Notes under the pieces: generated by a model
The model's database searches: none
The model's input: only the letters and a program-made list of their open reading frames with translations
What the model was told of the DNA's origin: nothing
Source: a virus
IMG/VR virus record: IMGVR_UViG_3300036846_000621
Location: 1-47,778 of that record
DNA: 47,778 nucleotides
Direction: 5' to 3' (one strand)
Program-made: the position numbers and the translations under genes
Shown here: positions 1 to 47,778 of the stretch, piece after piece
Numbering within the stretch: the stretch's first letter is position 1
Layout of the letters: each line of letters opens with the position of its first letter

Positions 1-127
1 ACACAACTATCTCATATCCCGCGAGGCATAGGAGGTACATCGTGGCAACCCGCAGAAAGGCAAAGCCGAAGGTCGAAGTCGAAGAGCTCGAAGAGGACGA
101 GGAGATCGACGAAGACGAGCTCGACCT
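1..127. repeat. Terminal direct repeat, copy 1 (contig circularisation overlap)
   Basis: Bases 1-127 are identical to 47652-47778. An exact overlap of 127 bases at the ends of a contig is the usual sign of a circular or terminally redundant molecule assembled with a k-mer of 127, and not necessarily a biological terminal repeat. The gene starting at 42 and its promoter at 47598-47626 are contiguous once the ends are joined. Confidence 0.95.
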
Positions 128-734
128 CGACGACCTGGCTGACGAAGAGGAGGACGAGGAGATCGATGAGGACGAGGAAGAGGAGGACGACGAAGAAGAG
201 GATGAGGAAGAGGACGACGAAGTCCCCGCCGCGAAGAAGACGAAGAAGGCCCCACCGGTCAAGAAGGCCGCGAAGAAGCCTGTCAAGAAGAACTCGGTCA
301 GCGCACAGGACGTGGCAGAGGCGCTGTCGACCAAGGCGAAGAAGGTCAACGGTCGCGAGCTCAGGGTCTTGCTCAGGCAGAAGGGGCTCAACGAGACCGC
401 CAAGAACGAGCAGGGCCGGTACGAGTGGCCCAGTCTCGCAGCGGCGCTCGAGGCGATGGGCTTCGAGGACCTCGAGGAGGCACGCGAAGCGCTGTTGGAG
501 TCGCGTGACCAGCGCCTCGAGGAGCTGAAGGAGAAGGTCGGGAAGACGCGCAAGACGAAGAAGAAGGTCGAGCCCGAGGACGAGGAAGAAGAGATCGAGG
601 AGGACGATCTCGAAGACCTCGACGAGGAGGACGAGGACGAAGAGGAAGAGGCCCCGCCCCCCAAGCGCACCCGGAAGAAGGCGACGACCACCACGACCAC
701 CACGACGGCGAAGAAATCAACACGCCGCAAGTAG
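42..734 (+). CDS. Acidic/basic low-complexity DNA-binding protein with a central helix-turn-helix-like domain
   Basis: 230 aa, GTG start with an AGGAGG site 6 bases upstream. Visible layout: an Asp/Glu-rich segment (about residues 13-60), a Lys-rich linker, a folded segment (about 88-165), a second acidic run (about 183-208), and a Lys/Arg/Thr tail with eight consecutive Thr. The folded segment has the same pattern of residues as the small proteins at 43157 and 43925 (helix, LRxxLRxK turn, AKN, aromatic residue), so I infer a shared Lsr2-like/winged-helix DNA-binding unit. Alternating acidic and histone-H1-like basic blocks suggest a nucleoid-associated or host-chromatin protein. It is expressed from the strongest promoter seen, across the contig junction, and is followed by a clear terminator. 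Function is not established. Confidence 0.85.
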   Translation: MATRRKAKPKVEVEELEEDEEIDEDELDLDDLADEEEDEEIDEDEEEEDDEEEDEEEDDEVPAAKKTKKAPPVKKAAKKPVKKNSVSAQDVAEALSTKAKKVNGRELRVLLRQKGLNETAKNEQGRYEWPSLAAALEAMGFEDLEEAREALLESRDQRLEELKEKVGKTRKTKKKVEPEDEEEEIEEDDLEDLDEEDEDEEEEAPPPKRTRKKATTTTTTTTAKKSTRRK

Positions 735-7998: not shown

Positions 7999-8298
7999 AT
8001 GAAAGGACATTCGAAGCCAAGGGTGGCATCATATCACTGGCGAAAGTTAGGTGTCACGTGGGAGTACTATGATAAGCAGTTTGAGAAGCAAGGTGGGCGG
8101 TGCGCTATATGCAGACGGACGGAAGATGAGGCTCATTCCACGATGACACGTGAGTATAAGTACTTTATTGTAGACCATGACCATGAGACCGGTGCGTTAC
8201 GTGGGCTCCTATGCAATGCCTGCAACACCCGCATGGGTTGGTTAGAGAAGAATGTCGAAACTGCTGTTGATTACTTGAGGAGGTGGCGATCATCGTAG
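7999..8298 (+). CDS. Endonuclease VII-like HNH/Holliday-junction resolvase
   Basis: 99 aa. Matches the recombination endonuclease VII family: GGRCAICRR, then VDHDHETGALRGLLCN, then ACNTRMG. The two Cys pairs hold zinc and the DHDH is catalytic. The family resolves branched DNA (as T4 gp49 does before packaging), though small versions are also common as free-standing homing-type nucleases. It has its own leaderless-type promoter, unlike its neighbours, which supports either late resolvase timing or a mobile origin. The end overlaps the GTG of the kinase gene. Confidence 0.85.
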   Translation: MKGHSKPRVASYHWRKLGVTWEYYDKQFEKQGGRCAICRRTEDEAHSTMTREYKYFIVDHDHETGALRGLLCNACNTRMGWLEKNVETAVDYLRRWRSS

Positions 8299-8837
8299 TG
8301 CTCGAGGGACCCGACGGTGGTGGCAAAACGACGTTGGCGCACAGTTTGTGTGAGCGGTTCGGGCTGAAGTATTGTCGACCGCCAGAGAATCTATTAAGCT
8401 CTACCACTGGGCCGAGTCCAGGGCTGCACGAGTGGTGGCGTGAGCAGTTGAGAAAGAAGGACAGGAGCGGCGTGTACGACCGATGTTTCTACATCAGCGA
8501 GCCGATCTACACGTCTCTAAGTGGCCGACAACCGCTCGTCGATGGTCCGACCCTCGCGCTAGGGCTGAATGATCTGTGGGTGGAGGGGCCGTTGATGATC
8601 TTCTGCCTGACGGACGAGGTTGCCATGCTGGAGAACACGTACATCGCCGGACGTCCCAGGCTAGCGGACATCAGCGACGATCAACAAAAGCTGAAGGCTG
8701 CTGCCTTTCTGTACTGGGCGGCTTATGGCACGTGGTGCACCGCACACGAGGACACTATACTCTACGATTACAACCTACACGACTTCGCCAAGATCGCGAA
8801 GGCCTACGAGAACTACTCCCGAACGAAGGTGGCTTGA
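8283..8837 (+). CDS. P-loop deoxynucleoside monophosphate kinase (thymidylate kinase-like)
   Basis: 184 aa, GTG start with a GAGGAG site inside the previous gene. P-loop EGPDGGGKTT (residues 8-17), then a YDRCF motif typical of the DR motif of thymidylate/dNMP kinases, then a weak lid region. It should phosphorylate a dNMP at the expense of ATP. It sits directly before a MazG-like hydrolase and two thymidylate-synthase-family genes. In T4 a dNMP kinase does this job for hydroxymethyl-dCMP, and a similar role is plausible here but unproven. Confidence 0.8.
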   Translation: MAIIVVLEGPDGGGKTTLAHSLCERFGLKYCRPPENLLSSTTGPSPGLHEWWREQLRKKDRSGVYDRCFYISEPIYTSLSGRQPLVDGPTLALGLNDLWVEGPLMIFCLTDEVAMLENTYIAGRPRLADISDDQQKLKAAAFLYWAAYGTWCTAHEDTILYDYNLHDFAKIAKAYENYSRTKVA

Positions 8838-9160
8838 TGGGCAGAATCAGAGAACTACAGGTCCAGCACGTTAACTGGCTATCGCACAACTTCCCCGAGC
8901 AGCAAGACCATCAGCCATTACTAGGCATCGTTGAAGAGGTCGGTGAGTTGGCGCACGCACTGCTGAAGTCGGAGCAGGGCATTCGCGGCGGTAACCACAG
9001 GGCTGAGGAGCTGGACGCGATTGGGGACATCTTCATCTACATGCTCAGCTATTGTAACACTCGGGGCATTGACCTCGAGGACGTCATCGAAGGTACGTGG
9101 CGTGCGGTAAGAGAACGTGACTGGGTAGCAGACCCCGCAGGCGGGGGAGCCACGTCATGA
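8837..9160 (+). CDS. MazG-like all-alpha NTP pyrophosphohydrolase
   Basis: 107 aa, ATG overlapping the kinase stop (TGATG). It shows the metal-binding signature of the family: EEVGE (residues 33-37), then EELDAIGD. Members hydrolyse (d)NTPs to monophosphates; the same superfamily includes phage dUTPases and dCTPases. Location in the nucleotide module suggests dNTP-pool control, and a dCTPase role would fit the neighbouring dCMP-type enzymes. Substrate cannot be told from sequence. Confidence 0.8.
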   Translation: MGRIRELQVQHVNWLSHNFPEQQDHQPLLGIVEEVGELAHALLKSEQGIRGGNHRAEELDAIGDIFIYMLSYCNTRGIDLEDVIEGTWRAVRERDWVADPAGGGATS

Positions 9161-9351
9161 CGCAGATTACATTCACCGCTGGCAACACATCAGATCCGCA
9201 GCACCCCTGGAACTTCGGGTGTTGGATCTTCCCCGAGGGCCACCCACTCGCAGCGTACGAACGCGCCGAGTACCAGCGCCTACAGCTTACACGACCACCT
9301 AATCAACTTCAGCTCATGCCCACCCCACAACAGCTAGGAACAAATGATTAG
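9157..9351 (+). CDS. Hypothetical small protein
   Basis: 64 aa, ATG overlapping the previous stop (ATGA). Contains a compact GNTSDPQHPWNFGCWIFP start and a Gln/Pro-rich end. No family recognised; it overlaps the start of the next gene by 8 bases, so it is part of the same translationally coupled unit. Confidence 0.65.
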   Translation: MTQITFTAGNTSDPQHPWNFGCWIFPEGHPLAAYERAEYQRLQLTRPPNQLQLMPTPQQLGTND

Positions 9352-10180
9352 GCACTACGATGACATGTCAGATCTGTGGCGCTTGACAGTGAGGAGAATG
9401 TGGCGTGGAACTCTCGACAACGGAGGGATCAACGTCGTGGGCTCAGCTGATACTATCGCCTACGACAATCTGCTGGTGGCGAATTCGATGGACTTCGACA
9501 TTGATCTGGGTAGAGATCTGTGGCTTAACGGGGCGAGGTGGACAAGACTCGTCCGCCAGTATCTCGATCTCTCGGACACGCGGAGCTTCATCGACCGATC
9601 GGCGGATATCGGTTTGGGGGAAGGCGCCAAAGGCGTGGTTACTCAAATGCCTTGCGCTCCTATTACACGAGAGGCAAAGAAGCACCGGTGGGGAAACTGC
9701 ATGTTGGGTTTCACCTATCGAGGCAATAGACGATACGCTGGTGAAGTTGGGGGACCAACTGTCAGCATGCACTCCCGAGTATCTTACATTGCTTACATCG
9801 GAGGACTGGACCTCGCACTTGCCAGCGTCCTCGCTAGAGAAATTGGCCGACGTATTGAAGTACCCATCACCCAGTTCCAGTTCCGGTGGTATATAGACAG
9901 CCTGCAATTTCACGGATTCAAGAGCCTGCCGTTTCTGTACAAGTCAGAATATATCCACGACCTCGAGCGCCCACCGCTGAGAAAGAAGTACCCGACGATG
10001 AACCTTGTCGGGCGGTGGTGGGATCGTATCGTCGAAAGTGAGGAGACGGGCAAGCCGCTCGACGCTGAGAAGTATGGCCCACTCCGTAGAGTCCGTCGAC
10101 GCTATCGTGAGTACTGTGCTGAGGACTTTCTACCGTCGGTCGTGCTCGACGACCTTACACTAGCCCCATTGTATAGGTAG
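9344..10180 (+). CDS. Divergent thymidylate synthase / dCMP hydroxymethylase-fold protein
   Basis: 278 aa. By eye it aligns with the core of ThyA: a Cys in RWGNC (residue 119) at the catalytic Cys position, a long hairpin, HSR (Arg145) for the phosphate-binding Arg, then a helix with Asp156 eleven residues after that Arg. ThyA enzymes that act on dUMP have Asn there; dCMP hydroxymethylases have Asp. A QFRWYIDSLQFH strand near the end resembles the GDxHxY region. The Asp of the usual RSxD motif is replaced by Tyr, so catalysis may be altered or lost. Similar proteins could be an accessory subunit; the assignment is moderate. Confidence 0.55.
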   Translation: MIRHYDDMSDLWRLTVRRMWRGTLDNGGINVVGSADTIAYDNLLVANSMDFDIDLGRDLWLNGARWTRLVRQYLDLSDTRSFIDRSADIGLGEGAKGVVTQMPCAPITREAKKHRWGNCMLGFTYRGNRRYAGEVGGPTVSMHSRVSYIAYIGGLDLALASVLAREIGRRIEVPITQFQFRWYIDSLQFHGFKSLPFLYKSEYIHDLERPPLRKKYPTMNLVGRWWDRIVESEETGKPLDAEKYGPLRRVRRRYREYCAEDFLPSVVLDDLTLAPLYR

Positions 10181-10191
10181 GAATTTGGTAG

Positions 10192-10237
10192 TTGCGGGAG
10201 GTCATACGTTCGTGTTATCATACGTTTGTACGAACGT
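10192..10237 (+). promoter_or_regulatory. Promoter with overlapping palindromic operator-like repeats
   Basis: TTGCGG (10192-10197), an 18-bp spacer and extended -10 TGTTATCAT (10213-10221). The same stretch has direct repeats CATACGTTCG / CATACGTTTG and a near-perfect 16-bp palindrome ACGTTTGTACGAACGT immediately after the -10. This suggests a promoter controlled by a dimeric repressor, possibly the wHTH protein encoded just downstream. Confidence 0.6.
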
Positions 10238-10287
10238 TGAACCTTGAAAAACTAACCCCGTATCCTACCCAAAGAAGGGGATCCGAA

Positions 10288-10671
10288 ATGCAAAAGGTAA
10301 GTAGGCGTCAGCAGTCGGTGCTCGACGTACTCGACGAGGAGATCCGTGATCTGTCGGAGAAGCTCGCGAAGGTGCAGCCGATGATCGACGAACTCGCGCG
10401 GTTGAAGCGCACGCGGGCGACGCTCCTCAACGAGAGGGGCACCACAGGCAACATCAGCAACGGCACTCGTCTCACGATGGAGGAGGTCGTCGCTGCGCTG
10501 CGCGAGATGGGCGGGGCCGCTGCCCCGATCCCGCTGGCGAATCAGCTGAGCGTGGACGTGAACACGGTGCGCTCACACCTGAACCGCCACAAGGACAGCC
10601 GCTACGCGAAGCTCCCCGATGGTACGTGGGAGTTGATCGGTGAGGGGGCGATCGATAACGACGAGGAGTAG
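10288..10671 (+). CDS. Coiled-coil/winged-helix DNA-binding protein
   Basis: 127 aa from the ATG at 10288 with AGAAGGGGA upstream; an earlier in-frame start is unlikely because it precedes the promoter. The N-terminal ~45 residues form a coiled coil (LDEEIRDLSEKLAKVQPMI). The C-terminal ~60 residues are a winged helix (TMEEVVAALREMG, then LSVDVNTVRSHLNRH as recognition helix, then a hairpin wing). A dimeric transcriptional regulator is likely, and the palindromes at 10205-10237 are candidate autoregulatory sites. Confidence 0.75.
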   Translation: MQKVSRRQQSVLDVLDEEIRDLSEKLAKVQPMIDELARLKRTRATLLNERGTTGNISNGTRLTMEEVVAALREMGGAAAPIPLANQLSVDVNTVRSHLNRHKDSRYAKLPDGTWELIGEGAIDNDEE

Positions 10672-10680
10672 TCATATCAT

Positions 10681-10716
10681 GGGGGTGAGTTGGTGAATAT
10701 ACCCAACTCATCCCCC
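10681..10716 (+). other. mRNA hairpin between regulator and dCMP-type enzyme gene
   Basis: GGGGGTGAGTTGG pairs with CCAACTCA and TCCCCC with one bulged base. No T-run follows, so it is not a standard terminator. It lies 21 bases before the TTG start of the next gene and would mask a possible GTG start at 10690. A translational or processing control element is possible. Confidence 0.55.
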
Positions 10717-10737
10717 TACCCCAGGAGAGGAGGCAAC

Positions 10738-11508
10738 TTGAGTCAGTATGAATATGTGCTCGCGCGCGAGATGGACATGTTGATAGCCCTGCTCAAGAGT
10801 TTGGGTCAGGAGGCAGACTCTGGGCATTGGCAGGGCGTGTCCACAGAAGGGCATCCGGAGATGACGACTATGGAGATCATCAACGCTCAGCTGGTGGCAC
10901 CGATTCCGCCGAACAAGTCGGAATTGGCGGCGGCGTGTCAGCCCAACCTGCCGTGGGCTGAGGACGAGTTTCAAGAGCGCGTGTCAGGCGAGCCACACAA
11001 CCCCCACAGATCGATGGACACATGGCCTTGGTGGCGTGGTCAGATTGACCGCACCATGAGCCACACTTACAGCGAGCGATTCTGGCCGACGTTCGACGAC
11101 GCTAATCAAGTCCGCATGGGCGTTCGCTACGCCTACGGCGACTTGAATGACGTGCTAGACCTGTTGCGTAAGCACCCACATACGCGGCAAGCGACGTTCC
11201 CCATCTTCTTCCCCGAGGACACAGGAGCTGTTCATGGAGGTCGTGTACCCTGTACCCTTCACTATCACTTCCTACTACGGGCAAACAAACTTCATCTGTG
11301 GTACCCAATCCGTAGTTGTGACGCCGTTCGGCACTTTCGTGATGACGTCTACATGGCTGCTCGTCTCTGTCTGTGGGTGCTGCATGAGCTGCAGACACTC
11401 AGGCCTGGCATCGAGTCGTCGCTGTGGGAGTACGTTACCCCCGGGCAGTTATATTTCACCGCCTACTCCTTCCACGTCCACAAAGCCGACGAACACCTAC
11501 TACCATGA
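10738..11508 (+). CDS. Thymidylate synthase-family enzyme, probable dCMP hydroxymethylase
   Basis: 256 aa from the TTG at 10738, chosen because GGAGAGGAGG sits just upstream and the earlier GTG lies inside a hairpin. Clear family motifs: RQATFPIFFPED, then VPCTLHYHF with catalytic Cys172, then IRSCD (Arg192-Asp195) exactly 20 residues after the Cys as in ThyA, then YSFHVH near the C-terminus. Eleven residues after Arg192 is Asp203, where ThyA has the Asn that selects dUMP; T4 dCMP hydroxymethylase has Asp there. I therefore predict a dCMP substrate and a methylene-folate-dependent one-carbon transfer. Confidence 0.75.
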   Translation: MSQYEYVLAREMDMLIALLKSLGQEADSGHWQGVSTEGHPEMTTMEIINAQLVAPIPPNKSELAAACQPNLPWAEDEFQERVSGEPHNPHRSMDTWPWWRGQIDRTMSHTYSERFWPTFDDANQVRMGVRYAYGDLNDVLDLLRKHPHTRQATFPIFFPEDTGAVHGGRVPCTLHYHFLLRANKLHLWYPIRSCDAVRHFRDDVYMAARLCLWVLHELQTLRPGIESSLWEYVTPGQLYFTAYSFHVHKADEHLLP

Positions 11509-11951
11509 CCCGAGAGCTCTTTAAGCATAGAGTCTTTATGTTGATCGCAGCACAGTTGTCAGCCCTGGGCACGTGTGACCGTGCGCAGGTGGGTGCGGTG
11601 ATCGTGCGTGATGGTCGCTGTGTCACCTGGGGCTACAACGGCGCTCCACCAGGCATACCCCACTGCAAGGAGAACAACCACGGGTGGGGCGATATGAGCG
11701 AGACGATAGAACACAAGGTCTCTGGCTGTCGCAATGCGACGCACGCTGAGTTGAACGCCCTTGCATTTGCAGCACGCCAGGGAATCAGTACAGACAATGG
11801 AACGCTGTACGTCACGTTGTCACCTTGTCTTGATTGTGCGCGTGCCCTGGTCGCCGCAGGCATCGTGCGCGTTTTCTACCATGACGCATATCGGGTCACC
11901 GATGGTCTTGATCTCCTCGCTCGAGGGGGGGTGCTTGTAGATTGTTTGTGA
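11505..11951 (+). CDS. Deoxycytidylate (dCMP) deaminase
   Basis: 148 aa from the ATG at 11505 that overlaps the previous stop (ATGA). Zinc motif of the cytidine/dCMP deaminase family: THAE (His80, Glu82) and SPCLDC (Cys108, Cys111). Length and the N-terminal CDRAQVGAVIV segment match ComEB-like dCMP deaminases, which make dUMP for dTMP synthesis and remove dCMP. It acts on the same pool as the enzyme encoded just before, so the two may balance dCMP use. Confidence 0.9.
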   Translation: MTRELFKHRVFMLIAAQLSALGTCDRAQVGAVIVRDGRCVTWGYNGAPPGIPHCKENNHGWGDMSETIEHKVSGCRNATHAELNALAFAARQGISTDNGTLYVTLSPCLDCARALVAAGIVRVFYHDAYRVTDGLDLLARGGVLVDCL

Positions 11952-12301
11952 GTGAAGAAGAACTTCAGTCATGGCGTGAGAGTCAACGGTCATATCGAAA
12001 GGGGCTTCGAAGGCGTAACAAGGTTACTAAGCACATGGAGGTTGATAAGAATGGATGTTGGATTTGGACCGGCAGTGGTGGTAAGTATGGCCAGGTGCGG
12101 TATAAGGGTAGGTCTTATACGGCTCATAGGTTTTCTGCCTTTGTCTTCCTCAACTTCAACTTAACAAGCGAATTAGTGGTGGCCCACAGATGCGATGTGC
12201 CGCGGTGTGTTAATCCGGACCACCTCTTCATAGGCACCTATAAAGATAATACCCAAGATATGCTTAGTAAGGGTAGAGGCCGATGGCAGAAAGATACGTA
12301 A
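11948..12301 (+). CDS. HNH homing-type endonuclease
   Basis: 117 aa from the GTG at 11948; a TTG two codons earlier is an alternative. It has an N-terminal basic helix, CWIWTGSGGKYGQVRYKG (the AP2/NUMOD-like strand pair typical of phage HNH nucleases), YTAHRFSAFVF and then the HNH core VVAHRCDVPRCVNPDHL with a following GTYKDNTQDM. It overlaps the deaminase by 4 bases and the polymerase by 19. A free-standing mobile endonuclease inserted precisely between two replication genes is the simplest reading. Confidence 0.85.
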   Translation: MSEEELQSWRESQRSYRKGLRRRNKVTKHMEVDKNGCWIWTGSGGKYGQVRYKGRSYTAHRFSAFVFLNFNLTSELVVAHRCDVPRCVNPDHLFIGTYKDNTQDMLSKGRGRWQKDT

Positions 12302-14730
12302 GCCCGTTCGACCATCTAATGAACCACAACTGTACTGACTGTAGCCTACATGAAGGAACGGAGAGAGTATGTATAGGCGGTTCTGGCAACCCGAAATCGA
12401 AGATACTCATACTAGGAGAAGCGCCCGGTGAGAACGAAGCAAGAACAGGTAGGGTCTTTTCTGGGCGAGCCGGTCAACTGCTGGACCTCGCGCTTAAAGA
12501 TGCAGGGCTGGAGAGAGACGAGATTTATGTCTCTAACGTGGTCCGCTGTCGACCCGACGACAACCGTCGACCTAGCCGTGTCGAATGGGAAGCTTGTCGT
12601 CAGTATCTGGAGAGAGAGTCAGCCGCATTATCTCCACGTTTCGTTCTCCTCCTTGGAAACACTGCACTACAGGTGGTCGCTCGTAAGTCAGGCATCACTA
12701 CTAAACGCGGTGTTCGCTTGGATATCAAGGATCCAGTTTGGCAGTCTGCGGAGGTCATGGCAACCATCCACCCAGCATTTGTTCTCCGCAACCCCGGACA
12801 AGGTACAGTTTTTTCCGAAGACATTCGCCGATTTGCCCGAATGGTTCATGGAGAGTTTCGCGCGGTTAGTGTCAGACCTCGGATGGTACGAACATCAAAA
12901 GGACTCAAGCTCGTCAAGCGACTCCTCATGGACGCGCCAGAAGGCACGGTCGTAAGCTATGACGTGGAGAACCGCGGAAGGCCTTGGGAACCTGAGTGGG
13001 ACATCGTCTGCTTGGGTGTTTCACTGGACGGCGAGAACACATACGTCATCCCACTTTCTCATCCTCAGTCTCCATTTCGACGACGTTGGCAAGACGTTCT
13101 CCGCTACCTTGCCCCTGCGCTCAATCGACACGGACATAAGTTGGTGGCTCAAAACGGTAAGCACGACAATGCCCAACTTGCCGGAGCCGGAGTTTACCTT
13201 CGCCATCAGTTCGATATTATGTTGGCTGCACATCTACTGGACGAGAACCGACCCAAGAACCTTGGATTTCTCAGTCAAAATGTCATTGGCGCCGACGTCT
13301 ACAAGGGGATGGTTGAGCTCAAACCTGACAAGATTATGGGCGAACCTCTCCGGAAGATCGCAGAATACAATGGCTACGACGTGGGTTATACTCACCAAAT
13401 CTACCACAGAGTGAGAGAAGAACTGTTGGCCCAGCCCCGACTCACCCGTCTATTCATCAAGCTGATGATGCCCGCCTCGCATGTGATCCAAGAAGTCGAA
13501 ACTGCTGGCATGTACGTCGACCGAACCTTGCTGTGGGACCGTATCGAAATCCTCCAAAAGGAGATAGGGGTCCGCAAGGAGGTGCTCAATGAACATCTAC
13601 CGAAGAAGATGCGGGCGAACTTCAACTTCAACAGCACACAGCAACTCGGACGTTGGCTCTTTACTAAGGAGGGGTTGGGGTTATCCCCTCTCGAGAAAAC
13701 CGCGACAGGCCGACCATCCACACGCGAGGCTGTACTTCTTCACTATCACAATCATCCTGCTATTCGTGCTCTGCTGGAGTACCGAACATTGGAGTTGAAG
13801 TGGCTGAGAACTTGCTTGTTACCATGGTCTATGAAGTTGGATACGCGCTCACGCCTCCACACAACGTACAAGCTGTACGGGACGGTAACTGGGAGATTAT
13901 CTGGCGACCTTCAGCAGGTACCGAGGGATTCTTTCATTCGTGGTGTAATCGGTGCTCCTCCGGGGTGGTGCTTCGTCCAAGCGGATTACTCGCAGATAGA
14001 GTTACGCATCGCTGCCCATGTCTCGGGGGAGCAAAGGATGAGAAGAGCGTTCCTAGCTGGCGAGGACCTTCACTTGCTGACGGCGAGCACGTTGACTGGG
14101 AAGTCTGGGCCTTCAGTGACGAAGGAGGAGAGGAAGAAGGCGAAGGCGGTGAACTTCGGGTTCCTCTACGGGATGTATCCGAGGAAGTTTCAGCAATACG
14201 CCTTCGAGAACTACGAACTCGAGGTGAGTCTGAATGAGGCGGAGCTGGCTCGTCAGCAATACTTCGAGATGTTCCCACAGCTGGTGGGTTGGCACGATCG
14301 CCAGCGTCGTGTGGCCCATAACCATCATCGGGTTGTATCTCCCCTGGGTCGCATACGTCACCTACCTGACATTCTTAGCTCTGACAACGGCGTACGCATG
14401 GAGGCTGAGAGGCAAGCGATAAACTCACCCGTGCAGGCTACAGCCTCGGACTTCATGTTGTTCAGCATGGTGATACTGCACCCATTACTCGACCACAGAG
14501 AGGCGTTCATGGTCGGGACACTTCACGACGCGATCTTCTTCCAGGTGAAGGAGGATAAGATCGATAAGTGGCTACCGATCATCAAGGAAACCATGGAGAA
14601 CCTACCACTCAAGAAGACTTTCGGATTCAAGCCAAGCATACCCATCGTGGCAGATGTTGAATATGCCCAGCACTGGACAGGTACGCCCGACGCCAGCGGC
14701 TTGGGTATAGACTACGCGGATGTGATATAA
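12283..14730 (+). CDS. Uracil-DNA glycosylase / DNA polymerase I fusion
   Basis: 815 aa. Residues 1-200 are a family-4 type uracil-DNA glycosylase: Cys17, Cys20, Cys89 and Cys105 for a 4Fe-4S cluster, catalytic GEAPGENE (45-52), FSGRAGQLLD, NVVRCRP, HPAFVLR (163-169). Then a 3'-5' exonuclease domain (DVE near 226, NGKHDNAQ, YNGYDVGY), then a family A polymerase: motif A DYSQIELR (about 567), motif B KKAKAVNFGFLYG (about 620), motif C LHDA (about 746). The usual motif C is HDE; the final acidic residue is Ala here. No 5' nuclease domain. This is the replicative polymerase; the glycosylase probably removes or senses uracil at the fork. Confidence 0.93.
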   Translation: MAERYVSPFDHLMNHNCTDCSLHEGTERVCIGGSGNPKSKILILGEAPGENEARTGRVFSGRAGQLLDLALKDAGLERDEIYVSNVVRCRPDDNRRPSRVEWEACRQYLERESAALSPRFVLLLGNTALQVVARKSGITTKRGVRLDIKDPVWQSAEVMATIHPAFVLRNPGQGTVFSEDIRRFARMVHGEFRAVSVRPRMVRTSKGLKLVKRLLMDAPEGTVVSYDVENRGRPWEPEWDIVCLGVSLDGENTYVIPLSHPQSPFRRRWQDVLRYLAPALNRHGHKLVAQNGKHDNAQLAGAGVYLRHQFDIMLAAHLLDENRPKNLGFLSQNVIGADVYKGMVELKPDKIMGEPLRKIAEYNGYDVGYTHQIYHRVREELLAQPRLTRLFIKLMMPASHVIQEVETAGMYVDRTLLWDRIEILQKEIGVRKEVLNEHLPKKMRANFNFNSTQQLGRWLFTKEGLGLSPLEKTATGRPSTREAVLLHYHNHPAIRALLEYRTLELKWLRTCLLPWSMKLDTRSRLHTTYKLYGTVTGRLSGDLQQVPRDSFIRGVIGAPPGWCFVQADYSQIELRIAAHVSGEQRMRRAFLAGEDLHLLTASTLTGKSGPSVTKEERKKAKAVNFGFLYGMYPRKFQQYAFENYELEVSLNEAELARQQYFEMFPQLVGWHDRQRRVAHNHHRVVSPLGRIRHLPDILSSDNGVRMEAERQAINSPVQATASDFMLFSMVILHPLLDHREAFMVGTLHDAIFFQVKEDKIDKWLPIIKETMENLPLKKTFGFKPSIPIVADVEYAQHWTGTPDASGLGIDYADVI

Positions 14731-47626: not shown

Positions 47627-47686
47627 AGTTGTGTCGGATTCCTCGCGTCCGACACAACTATCTCATATCCCGCGAGGCATAGGAGG
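47624..47686 (+). promoter_or_regulatory. 15-bp inverted repeat and candidate H-type pseudoknot leader
   Basis: GATAGTTGTGTCGGA (47624-47638) is a perfect inverted repeat of TCCGACACAACTATC (47648-47662). In RNA starting near 47631, GTGTCGGA pairs with TCCGACAC; the loop CCTCGCG (47641-47647) can then pair with CGCGAGG (47671-47677). Loop sizes are 2, 0 and 15 bases, a standard H-type pseudoknot. The AGGAGG site begins four bases after stem 2, so folding could control ribosome access. Confidence 0.6.
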
Positions 47687-47778
47687 TACATCGTGGCAAC
47701 CCGCAGAAAGGCAAAGCCGAAGGTCGAAGTCGAAGAGCTCGAAGAGGACGAGGAGATCGACGAAGACGAGCTCGACCT
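47652..47778. repeat. Terminal direct repeat, copy 2
   Basis: Exact copy of bases 1-127; see that entry. The sequence should be joined here and one copy removed. Confidence 0.95.
47693..47778 (+). CDS. 5' fragment of the 42-734 gene, duplicated by contig overlap
   Basis: GTG at 47693 equals the GTG at 42; the first 86 bases of that gene are repeated and cut by the window end. Not a separate gene. Confidence 0.9.
   Translation, partial: MATRRKAKPKVEVEELEEDEEIDEDELD

What the first reader, a model, noticed from the sequence alone, without database searches (positions are those of the whole stretch)
8283..11951. Possible modified-cytosine pathway: kinase, MazG-type hydrolase and dCMP-type ThyA enzyme
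T4 makes hydroxymethylcytosine DNA with a dCMP hydroxymethylase, a dNMP kinase and a dCTPase. Here, in one translationally coupled block, are a P-loop dNMP kinase, a MazG-superfamily hydrolase and a ThyA-family enzyme with Asp203 where ThyA has the Asn that selects dUMP; catalytic Cys172 and Arg192 keep the exact 20-residue spacing. A dCMP deaminase next door would adjust the same pool. The phage may therefore replace or decorate cytosine, which would protect it from host nucleases.
Basis: partly seen in the sequence, partly recalled or inferred. Interest (0 to 1): 0.8.

Follow-up and report, generated by a model that had tools for sequence, protein, structure and literature searches.

The report
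Phage cytosine-modifying operon with paired ThyA-like enzymes
This phage carries a gene block that very probably makes a chemically altered cytosine for its DNA, and next to the recognised enzyme sits a second, previously unannotated enzyme of the same superfamily that travels with it in over 150 phage loci, including the therapeutic phage Muddy.

Summary
The block contains a TMPK-like P-loop kinase (8283-8837), a MazG-type hydrolase (8837-9160), a divergent ThyA (10738-11508) with Cys172, Arg192 and Asp203 at the TS C146/R166/N177 positions, and a dCMP deaminase (11505-11951). Asp203 is invariant in 163/163 relatives, as expected for a cytosine-type enzyme; published work links N177D ThyA to modified-cytosine phage DNA (PMC8670742).

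It is not a T4 gp42 copy: T4's proposed hydroxymethylation signature (D145, S94) is replaced by near-invariant Arg169 and His109.

Gene 9344-10180 (phrog_13667, 'unknown') folds as a second thymidylate-synthase-superfamily protein (AF2 pLDDT 91; all top-50 PDB matches; best MilA, 6e-6). It keeps its own Cys-Arg-Asp triad in 95/95 homologues. A proteobacterial-phage family (phrog_34294, also 'unknown') is homologous (hhalign 8e-15), triad in 55/55. Wherever the contig has room, either family lies beside a D-type ThyA.

Most likely both enzymes act on C5 of a cytosine nucleotide before polymerisation. The product (hydroxymethyl, methyl or other) is not determinable from sequence. The dCMP-type ThyA block is a known kind; the obligate second TS-fold enzyme is the new part.

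The parts
8283..8837 (+). TMPK-like P-loop (d)NMP kinase (GTG start 8283, or GTG 8298 on the TAGTG overlap with the HNH stop)
   Evidence: phrog_761 thymidylate kinase 4.7e-15; family motifs EGPDGxGKTT and YDRxxxSExIY; closest full-length solved relative by profile is SPbeta prophage YorR 2axp/3kb2, 6e-9
8837..9160 (+). MazG / all-alpha NTP pyrophosphohydrolase (candidate dCTPase or dUTPase)
   Evidence: PF03819 1.2e-6 and PF01503 2e-4; PDB profile hits YpjD, MazZ and dCTP pyrophosphatase 1
9157..9351 (+). 64-aa ORF of unknown function, overlapping both neighbours
   Evidence: no Pfam or PHROG match; only one other locus with a homologue at E<=1e-5
9344..10180 (+). second thymidylate-synthase-superfamily protein (phrog_13667), here 'partner': C119, R145, D156 triad
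   Evidence: phrog_13667 2e-35; AF2 pLDDT 91.1, pTM 0.89; Foldseek PDB top 50 all TS superfamily, best MilA 6.2e-6 prob 1.00; BFVD hits include PMBT14 protein 6e-8 and Acj9 gp42 4e-5; triad 95/95
10199..10244 (.). operator-like inverted/direct repeat (TCATACGTTYGT twice; 15-nt inverted arms) upstream of the regulator-like gene
10288..10671 (+). regulator-like (HTH-looking) small protein inserted between partner and ThyA; found in 8 other loci at E<=1e-5
   Evidence: no convincing family match
10681..10715 (+). 13-bp hairpin GGGGGTGAGTTGG / CCAACTCATCCCC upstream of the ThyA ribosome-binding site
   Evidence: (z -1.96)
10738..11508 (+). D-type ThyA: C172 (nucleophile), R192, D203 (cytosine-type residue), R169 at C-3, T173 at the TS H147 position, D195 at the TS D169 position
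   Evidence: phrog_160 4.5e-24; AF2 pLDDT 86.7, best PDB matches phage dCMP hydroxylase AfhB 8e-11 and L. casei TS N229D-dCMP 2e-10; residue counts
11505..11951 (+). dCMP deaminase (start ATG 11505, overlapping the ThyA stop)
   Evidence: phrog_174 2.7e-50; PF00383 1.5e-20
12283..14730 (+). family A DNA polymerase, the next conserved gene of the block (would have to use the modified dCTP)
   Evidence: phrog_17 5e-141; same order in Emalyn, Serbin, FF47, Zuko, Muddy, PMBT14 and P744

Best explanation
The block is a nucleotide-level cytosine-modification pathway. MazG-type hydrolysis of dCTP (inferred) supplies dCMP and removes normal dCTP. The D-type ThyA (10738) attacks C6 of dCMP with Cys172, aided by Asp203 at N3, and adds a one-carbon unit at C5. 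The partner enzyme (9344), a second TS-superfamily protein with its own Cys/Arg/Asp active-site set, acts on the same cytosine nucleotide, either as a second C5 step or as an obligate subunit. The kinase phosphorylates the modified dCMP towards the triphosphate, which the adjacent family A polymerase incorporates. The dCMP deaminase drains remaining dCMP to dUMP/dTMP. Shown: genes, order, predicted fold of both enzymes, triads, obligate pairing. Inferred: substrates, direction of each step, presence of the modified base in DNA, protection from nucleases.
For: ThyA C172/R192/D203 in 163/163 and T/S at the H147 position in 163/163, the two positions (177 and 147) that best separate ThyA of modified-cytosine contigs from normal ThyA (PMC8670742). 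S193 and R150 match TS S167/R126, the deoxyribose-type residues, whereas MilA has Ala/Lys. Profile and fold searches rank cytosine-type enzymes (MilA, AfhB, T4 gp42, TS N229D) at or near the top. Partner: fold, triad 95/95 and 55/55, two PHROG families homologous at 8e-15. Partner profiles searched alone: 96 of 98 and 54 of 55 distinct partners have a ThyA within 2.5 kb on the same strand; of the other three, two lie at contig ends and one has the ThyA about 0.9 kb upstream. Gene order is conserved from Gordonia, Mycobacterium and Streptomyces phages to Serratia, Pseudomonas and Yersinia phages.
Against: No measurement of virion nucleosides for any member was found in the papers read. The TS catalytic Glu (E58; T4 E60) aligns with N70, which is mostly Asn (124/165), and Arg169/His109 replace T4's D145/S94, so the chemistry may differ from both TS and gp42. 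The TS relation of the partner rests on predicted structure (TM 0.41-0.54 to the best PDB hits); sequence profiles alone do not show it. Large phages carry the same ThyA with no detectable partner, so the partner is not needed for ThyA as such.
Confidence: 0.68

Rival explanations
1. Ordinary dTTP-supply module: the deaminase makes dUMP, ThyA makes dTMP, the kinase makes dTDP and MazG is a dUTPase, with no modified base.
For: The genes are annotated thymidylate kinase, dUTPase and thymidylate synthase in public records; the kinase has TMPK-like motifs.
Against: Asp at the N177 position in 163/163 and T/S at H147, both published correlates of modified contigs. Separate ThyX genes occur in 4 of 20 records. 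The second TS-fold enzyme beside it would be unexplained.
Confidence: 0.12
2. T4-type 5-hydroxymethylation of dCMP by ThyA alone; the partner is a catalytically idle TS-fold scaffold or regulator.
For: D203/C172/R192 align with T4 gp42 D179/C148/R168. Large phages carry the ThyA without a detectable partner.
Against: The partner's Cys, Arg and Asp are invariant across two very divergent families, which argues for catalysis. The T4 hydroxymethylation signature (D145, S94) is absent (PMC6400193).
Confidence: 0.25
3. Folate-dependent 5-methylation of dCMP (Xp12-type, 5-methyl-dC) rather than hydroxymethylation.
For: N177D in normal TS is reported to favour dCMP and give 5-methyl-dCMP (cited in PMC8670742). 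AXL_3, a Stenotrophomonas phage with a similar kinase/hydrolase/ThyA/deaminase set, also has Asp there.
Against: AXL_3 ThyA is only 23% identical and has Asp at C-3; the partner is not explained. TS positions L143 and E58 are replaced.
Confidence: 0.2
4. Flavin-dependent 5-hydroxylation of dCMP, as in phage HY126 AfhB.
For: AfhB (9iqu/9iqc) is the best PDB fold match of ThyA (8e-11) and the second best of the partner (8e-6).
Against: ThyA keeps D195 at the pterin-binding TS D169 position (D 159, E 4 of 163), where AfhB has Asn. Only AfhB's PDB titles and part of its sequence were available, not its paper.
Confidence: 0.1

Closest known systems
T4 gp42 dCMP hydroxymethylase (1b49, 6a9b)
   Same: TS superfamily; Cys, Arg and Asp at equivalent positions; FRxD motif; neighbouring pool enzymes
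   Different: 21% identity; D145 to R169, S94 to H109, E60 to N70; second TS-fold enzyme beside it; no glucosyltransferase found among the genes scanned
MilA CMP 5-hydroxymethylase (5jnh, 5b6d)
   Same: best profile match of ThyA (6e-8) and best PDB fold match of the partner (6e-6); Asp at the N177 position
   Different: antibiotic biosynthesis; prefers CMP with Ala176/Lys133 (PMC5175136), where the window ThyA has Ser193/Arg150
AfhB, phage HY126 dCMP hydroxylase (9iqu, 9iqc)
   Same: phage TS-fold enzyme with a dCMP substrate; best PDB fold match of ThyA
   Different: described in the PDB as a flavin-dependent monooxygenase; Asn at the TS D169 position and Glu at C-3
D-type ThyA of MetaGPA 'modified contigs' (PMC8670742)
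   Same: N177D and a changed residue 147; co-occurs with PRA-PH/MazG and deaminase domains
   Different: that study highlights a carbamoyltransferase in the same clusters, absent here; the sections read do not mention the TS-fold partner
phrog_34294 family (Serratia Serbin gp051, PMBT14 gp48, Yersinia P744 ORF027)
   Same: homologue of the partner, same gene position and C-R-D triad; the P744 record calls its copy 'pyrimidine hmase synthase'
   Different: very divergent (not found by tblastn with the window protein); hosts are mostly proteobacteria

Membership tests
Thymidylate synthase superfamily (ThyA 10738) | TS fold | tested here: met
   AF2 pLDDT 86.7; listed Foldseek PDB hits all TS superfamily, 8e-11 to 1e-9
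Thymidylate synthase superfamily (ThyA 10738) | catalytic Cys and phosphate-binding Arg at spacing 20 | tested here: met
   C172 and R192, 163/163
Thymidylate synthase proper (dUMP) | Asn at the N177 position | tested here: not met
   D203, 163/163
Thymidylate synthase proper (dUMP) | catalytic Glu (E58, three residues before a Trp) | tested here: inconclusive
   N70 aligns there; the alignment is distant, and E80 or E/D75 might substitute
T4-type dCMP hydroxymethylase | Asp at the D179 position | tested here: met
   D203 aligns with T4 D179
T4-type dCMP hydroxymethylase | Asp/Glu three before Cys plus Ser two before Tyr96 (signature proposed in PMC6400193) | tested here: not met
   R169 in 161/163; H109 in 148 of 165
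T4-type dCMP hydroxymethylase | conversion of dCMP to hm-dCMP | not testable with these tools
   needs an enzyme assay
Thymidylate synthase superfamily (partner 9344) | TS fold | tested here: met
   AF2 pLDDT 91.1; Foldseek PDB top 50 all TS superfamily, best 6.2e-6 prob 1.00, TM about 0.4-0.5; prediction, not a solved structure
Thymidylate synthase superfamily (partner 9344) | significant sequence-profile similarity to ThyA | tested here: not met
   hhalign E 0.09-0.28, although the expanded-profile alignment puts C, R and D in register
Thymidylate synthase superfamily (partner 9344) | Cys / Arg / Asn-or-Asp triad in the same order on the same elements (Cys before a strand, Arg in the next strand, Asp in the next helix) | tested here: met
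   C119/R145/D156 in 95/95; secondary structure
AfhB-type flavin-dependent dCMP hydroxylase | flavin dependence | not testable with these tools
   only residue D195 versus Asn speaks against it
MazG / dCTPase superfamily | MazG domain above the curated cut-off | tested here: met
   PF03819 29.2 bits versus 22

The most novel reading that the evidence does not exclude
The partner family (phrog_13667 plus phrog_34294) is a new class of TS-superfamily enzyme that works only with a D-type ThyA. It either takes the ThyA product (for example hm-dCMP) through a covalent C6-Cys / exocyclic methylene intermediate to a new C5-substituted cytosine, or forms a hetero-oligomeric pyrimidine C5-transferase with it. 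Many phages, including the therapeutic phage Muddy, would then carry an undescribed cytosine base.
Probability: 0.35. Interest if true: 0.85.

Novelty: new variant of a known kind. Interest (0 to 1): 0.6.

Why it matters
Dozens of sequenced, culturable phages (68 Gordonia records, Muddy, FF47, PMBT14, Serbin) carry this pair under the labels 'thymidylate synthase' and 'hypothetical protein'. If the reading is right, their DNA contains modified cytosine, which would matter for restriction, CRISPR targeting, sequencing and phage engineering, and is testable by one LC-MS run. It gives a concrete catalytic hypothesis to two PHROG families of unknown function and separates a ThyA clade (R169/H109) from T4 gp42.

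Tried and rejected
Partner versus ThyA by sequence profile: not significant; structure was needed. Partner in Pfam: no hit for the window protein and no consistent hit for its 39 aligned members. PDB phmmer of the partner gave only chance hits (ketoacyl synthase, 0.03). Looked for the partner in the large phages with standalone ThyA: none (an empty result without a positive control in those records). Looked for a carbamoyltransferase: none, and saw no glycosyltransferase among the genes scanned. Xp12 accession MT664984 (from memory) is not in the collection. The literature searches found no nucleoside analysis of any member; the AfhB paper is not in the library. A genome-contig scan with the ThyA profile gave only two metagenome-bin contigs, so the window phage's host is unknown. 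Mirror-tree correlation: partner-kinase r 0.84, partner-ThyA 0.61, ThyA-deaminase 0.45; no conclusion drawn, since block inheritance and gene swaps confound it. Rfam: no match in the window.
Full report
WHAT WAS CHECKED. The window is one IMG/VR record. Its first and last 127 bases are identical, so it is probably a complete circularly mapped genome of 47,651 bp. It is a tailed phage: terminase, portal, major head protein, endolysin.

THE GENES. The kinase (8283-8837) has a P-loop and the DR motif of thymidylate-kinase-like enzymes. Its closest full-length solved relative by profile is YorR of prophage SPbeta. The hydrolase (8837-9160) is a MazG protein above the Pfam cut-off, with profile matches to YpjD, MazZ and dCTP pyrophosphatase 1. 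The deaminase (11505-11951) is a dCMP deaminase. Start/stop overlaps couple kinase, MazG, a 64-aa ORF and the 9344 gene. Then come a repeat-containing gap, a regulator-like gene and a 13-bp hairpin; then ThyA, again coupled to the deaminase.

THE D-TYPE ThyA. The enzyme at 10738 is a divergent member of the thymidylate synthase superfamily: phrog_160 4.5e-24; Pfam just under threshold; AF2 model with listed PDB matches all of TS type. Its profile hits the cytosine-type enzymes first: MilA 6e-8, AfhB 6e-7, T4 gp42 2e-5, with ordinary TS below. In 165 distinct relatives (two truncated before the motif), C172, R192 and D203 are invariant in 163/163, T or S stands at the TS His147 position in 163/163, and D (159) or E (4) at the TS Asp169 position. 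Positions 177 and 147 are the top two positions that distinguish ThyA of modified-cytosine contigs from ordinary ThyA in an experimental metagenome study (PMC8670742), and the same study reports co-occurrence with PRA-PH, dCMP deaminase and MafB19-like deaminase domains, all matched here. S193 and R150 are the deoxyribose-type residues by comparison with MilA (PMC5175136). Four of 20 records with this ThyA carry a separate ThyX.

WHERE IT DEPARTS FROM T4 gp42. The T4 structure paper proposes Asp three residues before the catalytic Cys, plus a Ser two before Tyr96, as a signature of hydroxymethylation (PMC6400193). Here these are Arg169 (161/163) and His109 (148 of 165), and the otherwise conserved catalytic Glu aligns with Asn70. 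AXL_3, a Stenotrophomonas phage with a similar pool set, has Asp at both the N177 and C-3 positions; it is a second D-type lineage. So the substrate class is well supported, but the product is not.

Gene 9344-10180 belongs to phrog_13667, function unknown, with no Pfam match. Its AF2 model is confident (pLDDT 91.1, pTM 0.89). All 50 listed PDB matches are TS-superfamily entries, headed by CMP hydroxymethylase MilA (6.2e-6, probability 1.00) and the phage dCMP hydroxylase AfhB (7.8e-6). Against predicted viral proteins it matches a PMBT14 protein (6e-8), several thymidylate synthases and Acinetobacter phage Acj9 gp42 (4e-5). TM-scores to the best PDB hits are modest (0.41-0.54) and sequence profiles alone do not show the link, so this is a prediction, though a consistent one. 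Cys119, Arg145 and Asp156 fall, as in ThyA, just before a strand, inside the next strand, and in the following helix; the expanded-profile alignment with ThyA, although not significant, puts C on C, R on R and D on D.

A SECOND FAMILY AT THE SAME PLACE. In Serratia, Pseudomonas, Yersinia, Brevundimonas and Desulfofustis phages a gene just upstream of ThyA is a different 'unknown' (phrog_34294). It has the same C-26-R-11-D spacing in the Serbin protein and is homologous to phrog_13667 by profile comparison (E 8e-15 with expanded alignments; 1e-5 with the first ones). The Yersinia P744 record already calls its copy 'pyrimidine hmase synthase', so others have glimpsed the relation. The triad is invariant in 95/95 untruncated phrog_13667-type and 55/55 phrog_34294-type sequences.

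OBLIGATE PAIRING. Searching viral contigs with the partner profiles only and then scoring neighbours in all loci held, a ThyA of the A2 profile lies within 2.5 kb on the same strand for 96 of 98 and 54 of 55 distinct partners. Of the three exceptions, two lie at contig ends and one has the ThyA about 0.9 kb upstream. The reverse is not true: large phages (many of 100-430 kb) have the ThyA alone, with no partner match in the whole record. The partner therefore looks like an addition that depends on the ThyA or its product. Among named phages the pair occurs in Gordonia, Mycobacterium (FF47, Muddy), Streptomyces, Microbacterium and Curtobacterium phages.

MECHANISM PROPOSED. MazG trims dCTP to dCMP; ThyA modifies C5 of dCMP; the partner performs a second C5 step or completes the enzyme; the kinase sends the product towards the triphosphate; the family A polymerase uses it; the deaminase diverts unmodified dCMP. 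Shown here: genes, order, predicted folds, conserved active-site residues, pairing. Inferred: every substrate and direction, the presence of a modified base in virion DNA, and protection. The partner's invariant Cys makes an idle scaffold less likely. I put about 0.68 on the pathway reading overall and about 0.35 on the partner being a new catalytic class with a new product. The rivals on the exact chemistry (hydroxymethylation, methylation, hydroxylation) overlap with the pathway reading rather than exclude it, so the stated confidences are not meant to sum to one.

KNOWN VERSUS NEW. A D-type ThyA in a pool-adjusting phage operon is a known kind (T4; MetaGPA). The obligate second TS-fold enzyme, uniting two PHROG families of unknown function, was not described in the papers I could read; the library lacks most subscription journals, so prior description is possible.

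Noticed in passing
window 1-127 and 47652-47778: Exact 127-bp direct repeat at the two contig ends: the genome is probably complete (47,651 bp unique).
   Followed up: yes
window 7999-8298 and 11942-12301: The block is flanked on both sides by small HNH-type nuclease genes (endonuclease VII-like; HNH endonuclease), a homing-like arrangement.
   Followed up: no
window 10681-10715: 13-bp hairpin just upstream of the ThyA ribosome-binding site; no T run, so possibly an RNA processing or translational control element.
   Followed up: partly
window 10199-10244: Paired TCATACGTTYGT boxes with inverted-repeat arms in the gap between partner and regulator-like gene; candidate operator.
   Followed up: no
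window 42-734: Low-complexity protein with long D/E and K/R/T runs at the contig start.
   Followed up: no
L077 (Serratia phage Serbin): Serbin is reported as related to 9g/CAjan-type phages but without their queuosine-type cluster (PMC6509536); it carries the paired TS block instead, suggesting one DNA-modification module may have replaced another.
   Followed up: partly
L022, L035, L026, L040: Phages with a standalone R169/D203-type ThyA; in L022, L035 and L040 a metallophosphoesterase-like gene precedes it.
   Followed up: partly
60 loci: Partner distances correlate best with kinase distances (r 0.84).
   Followed up: no
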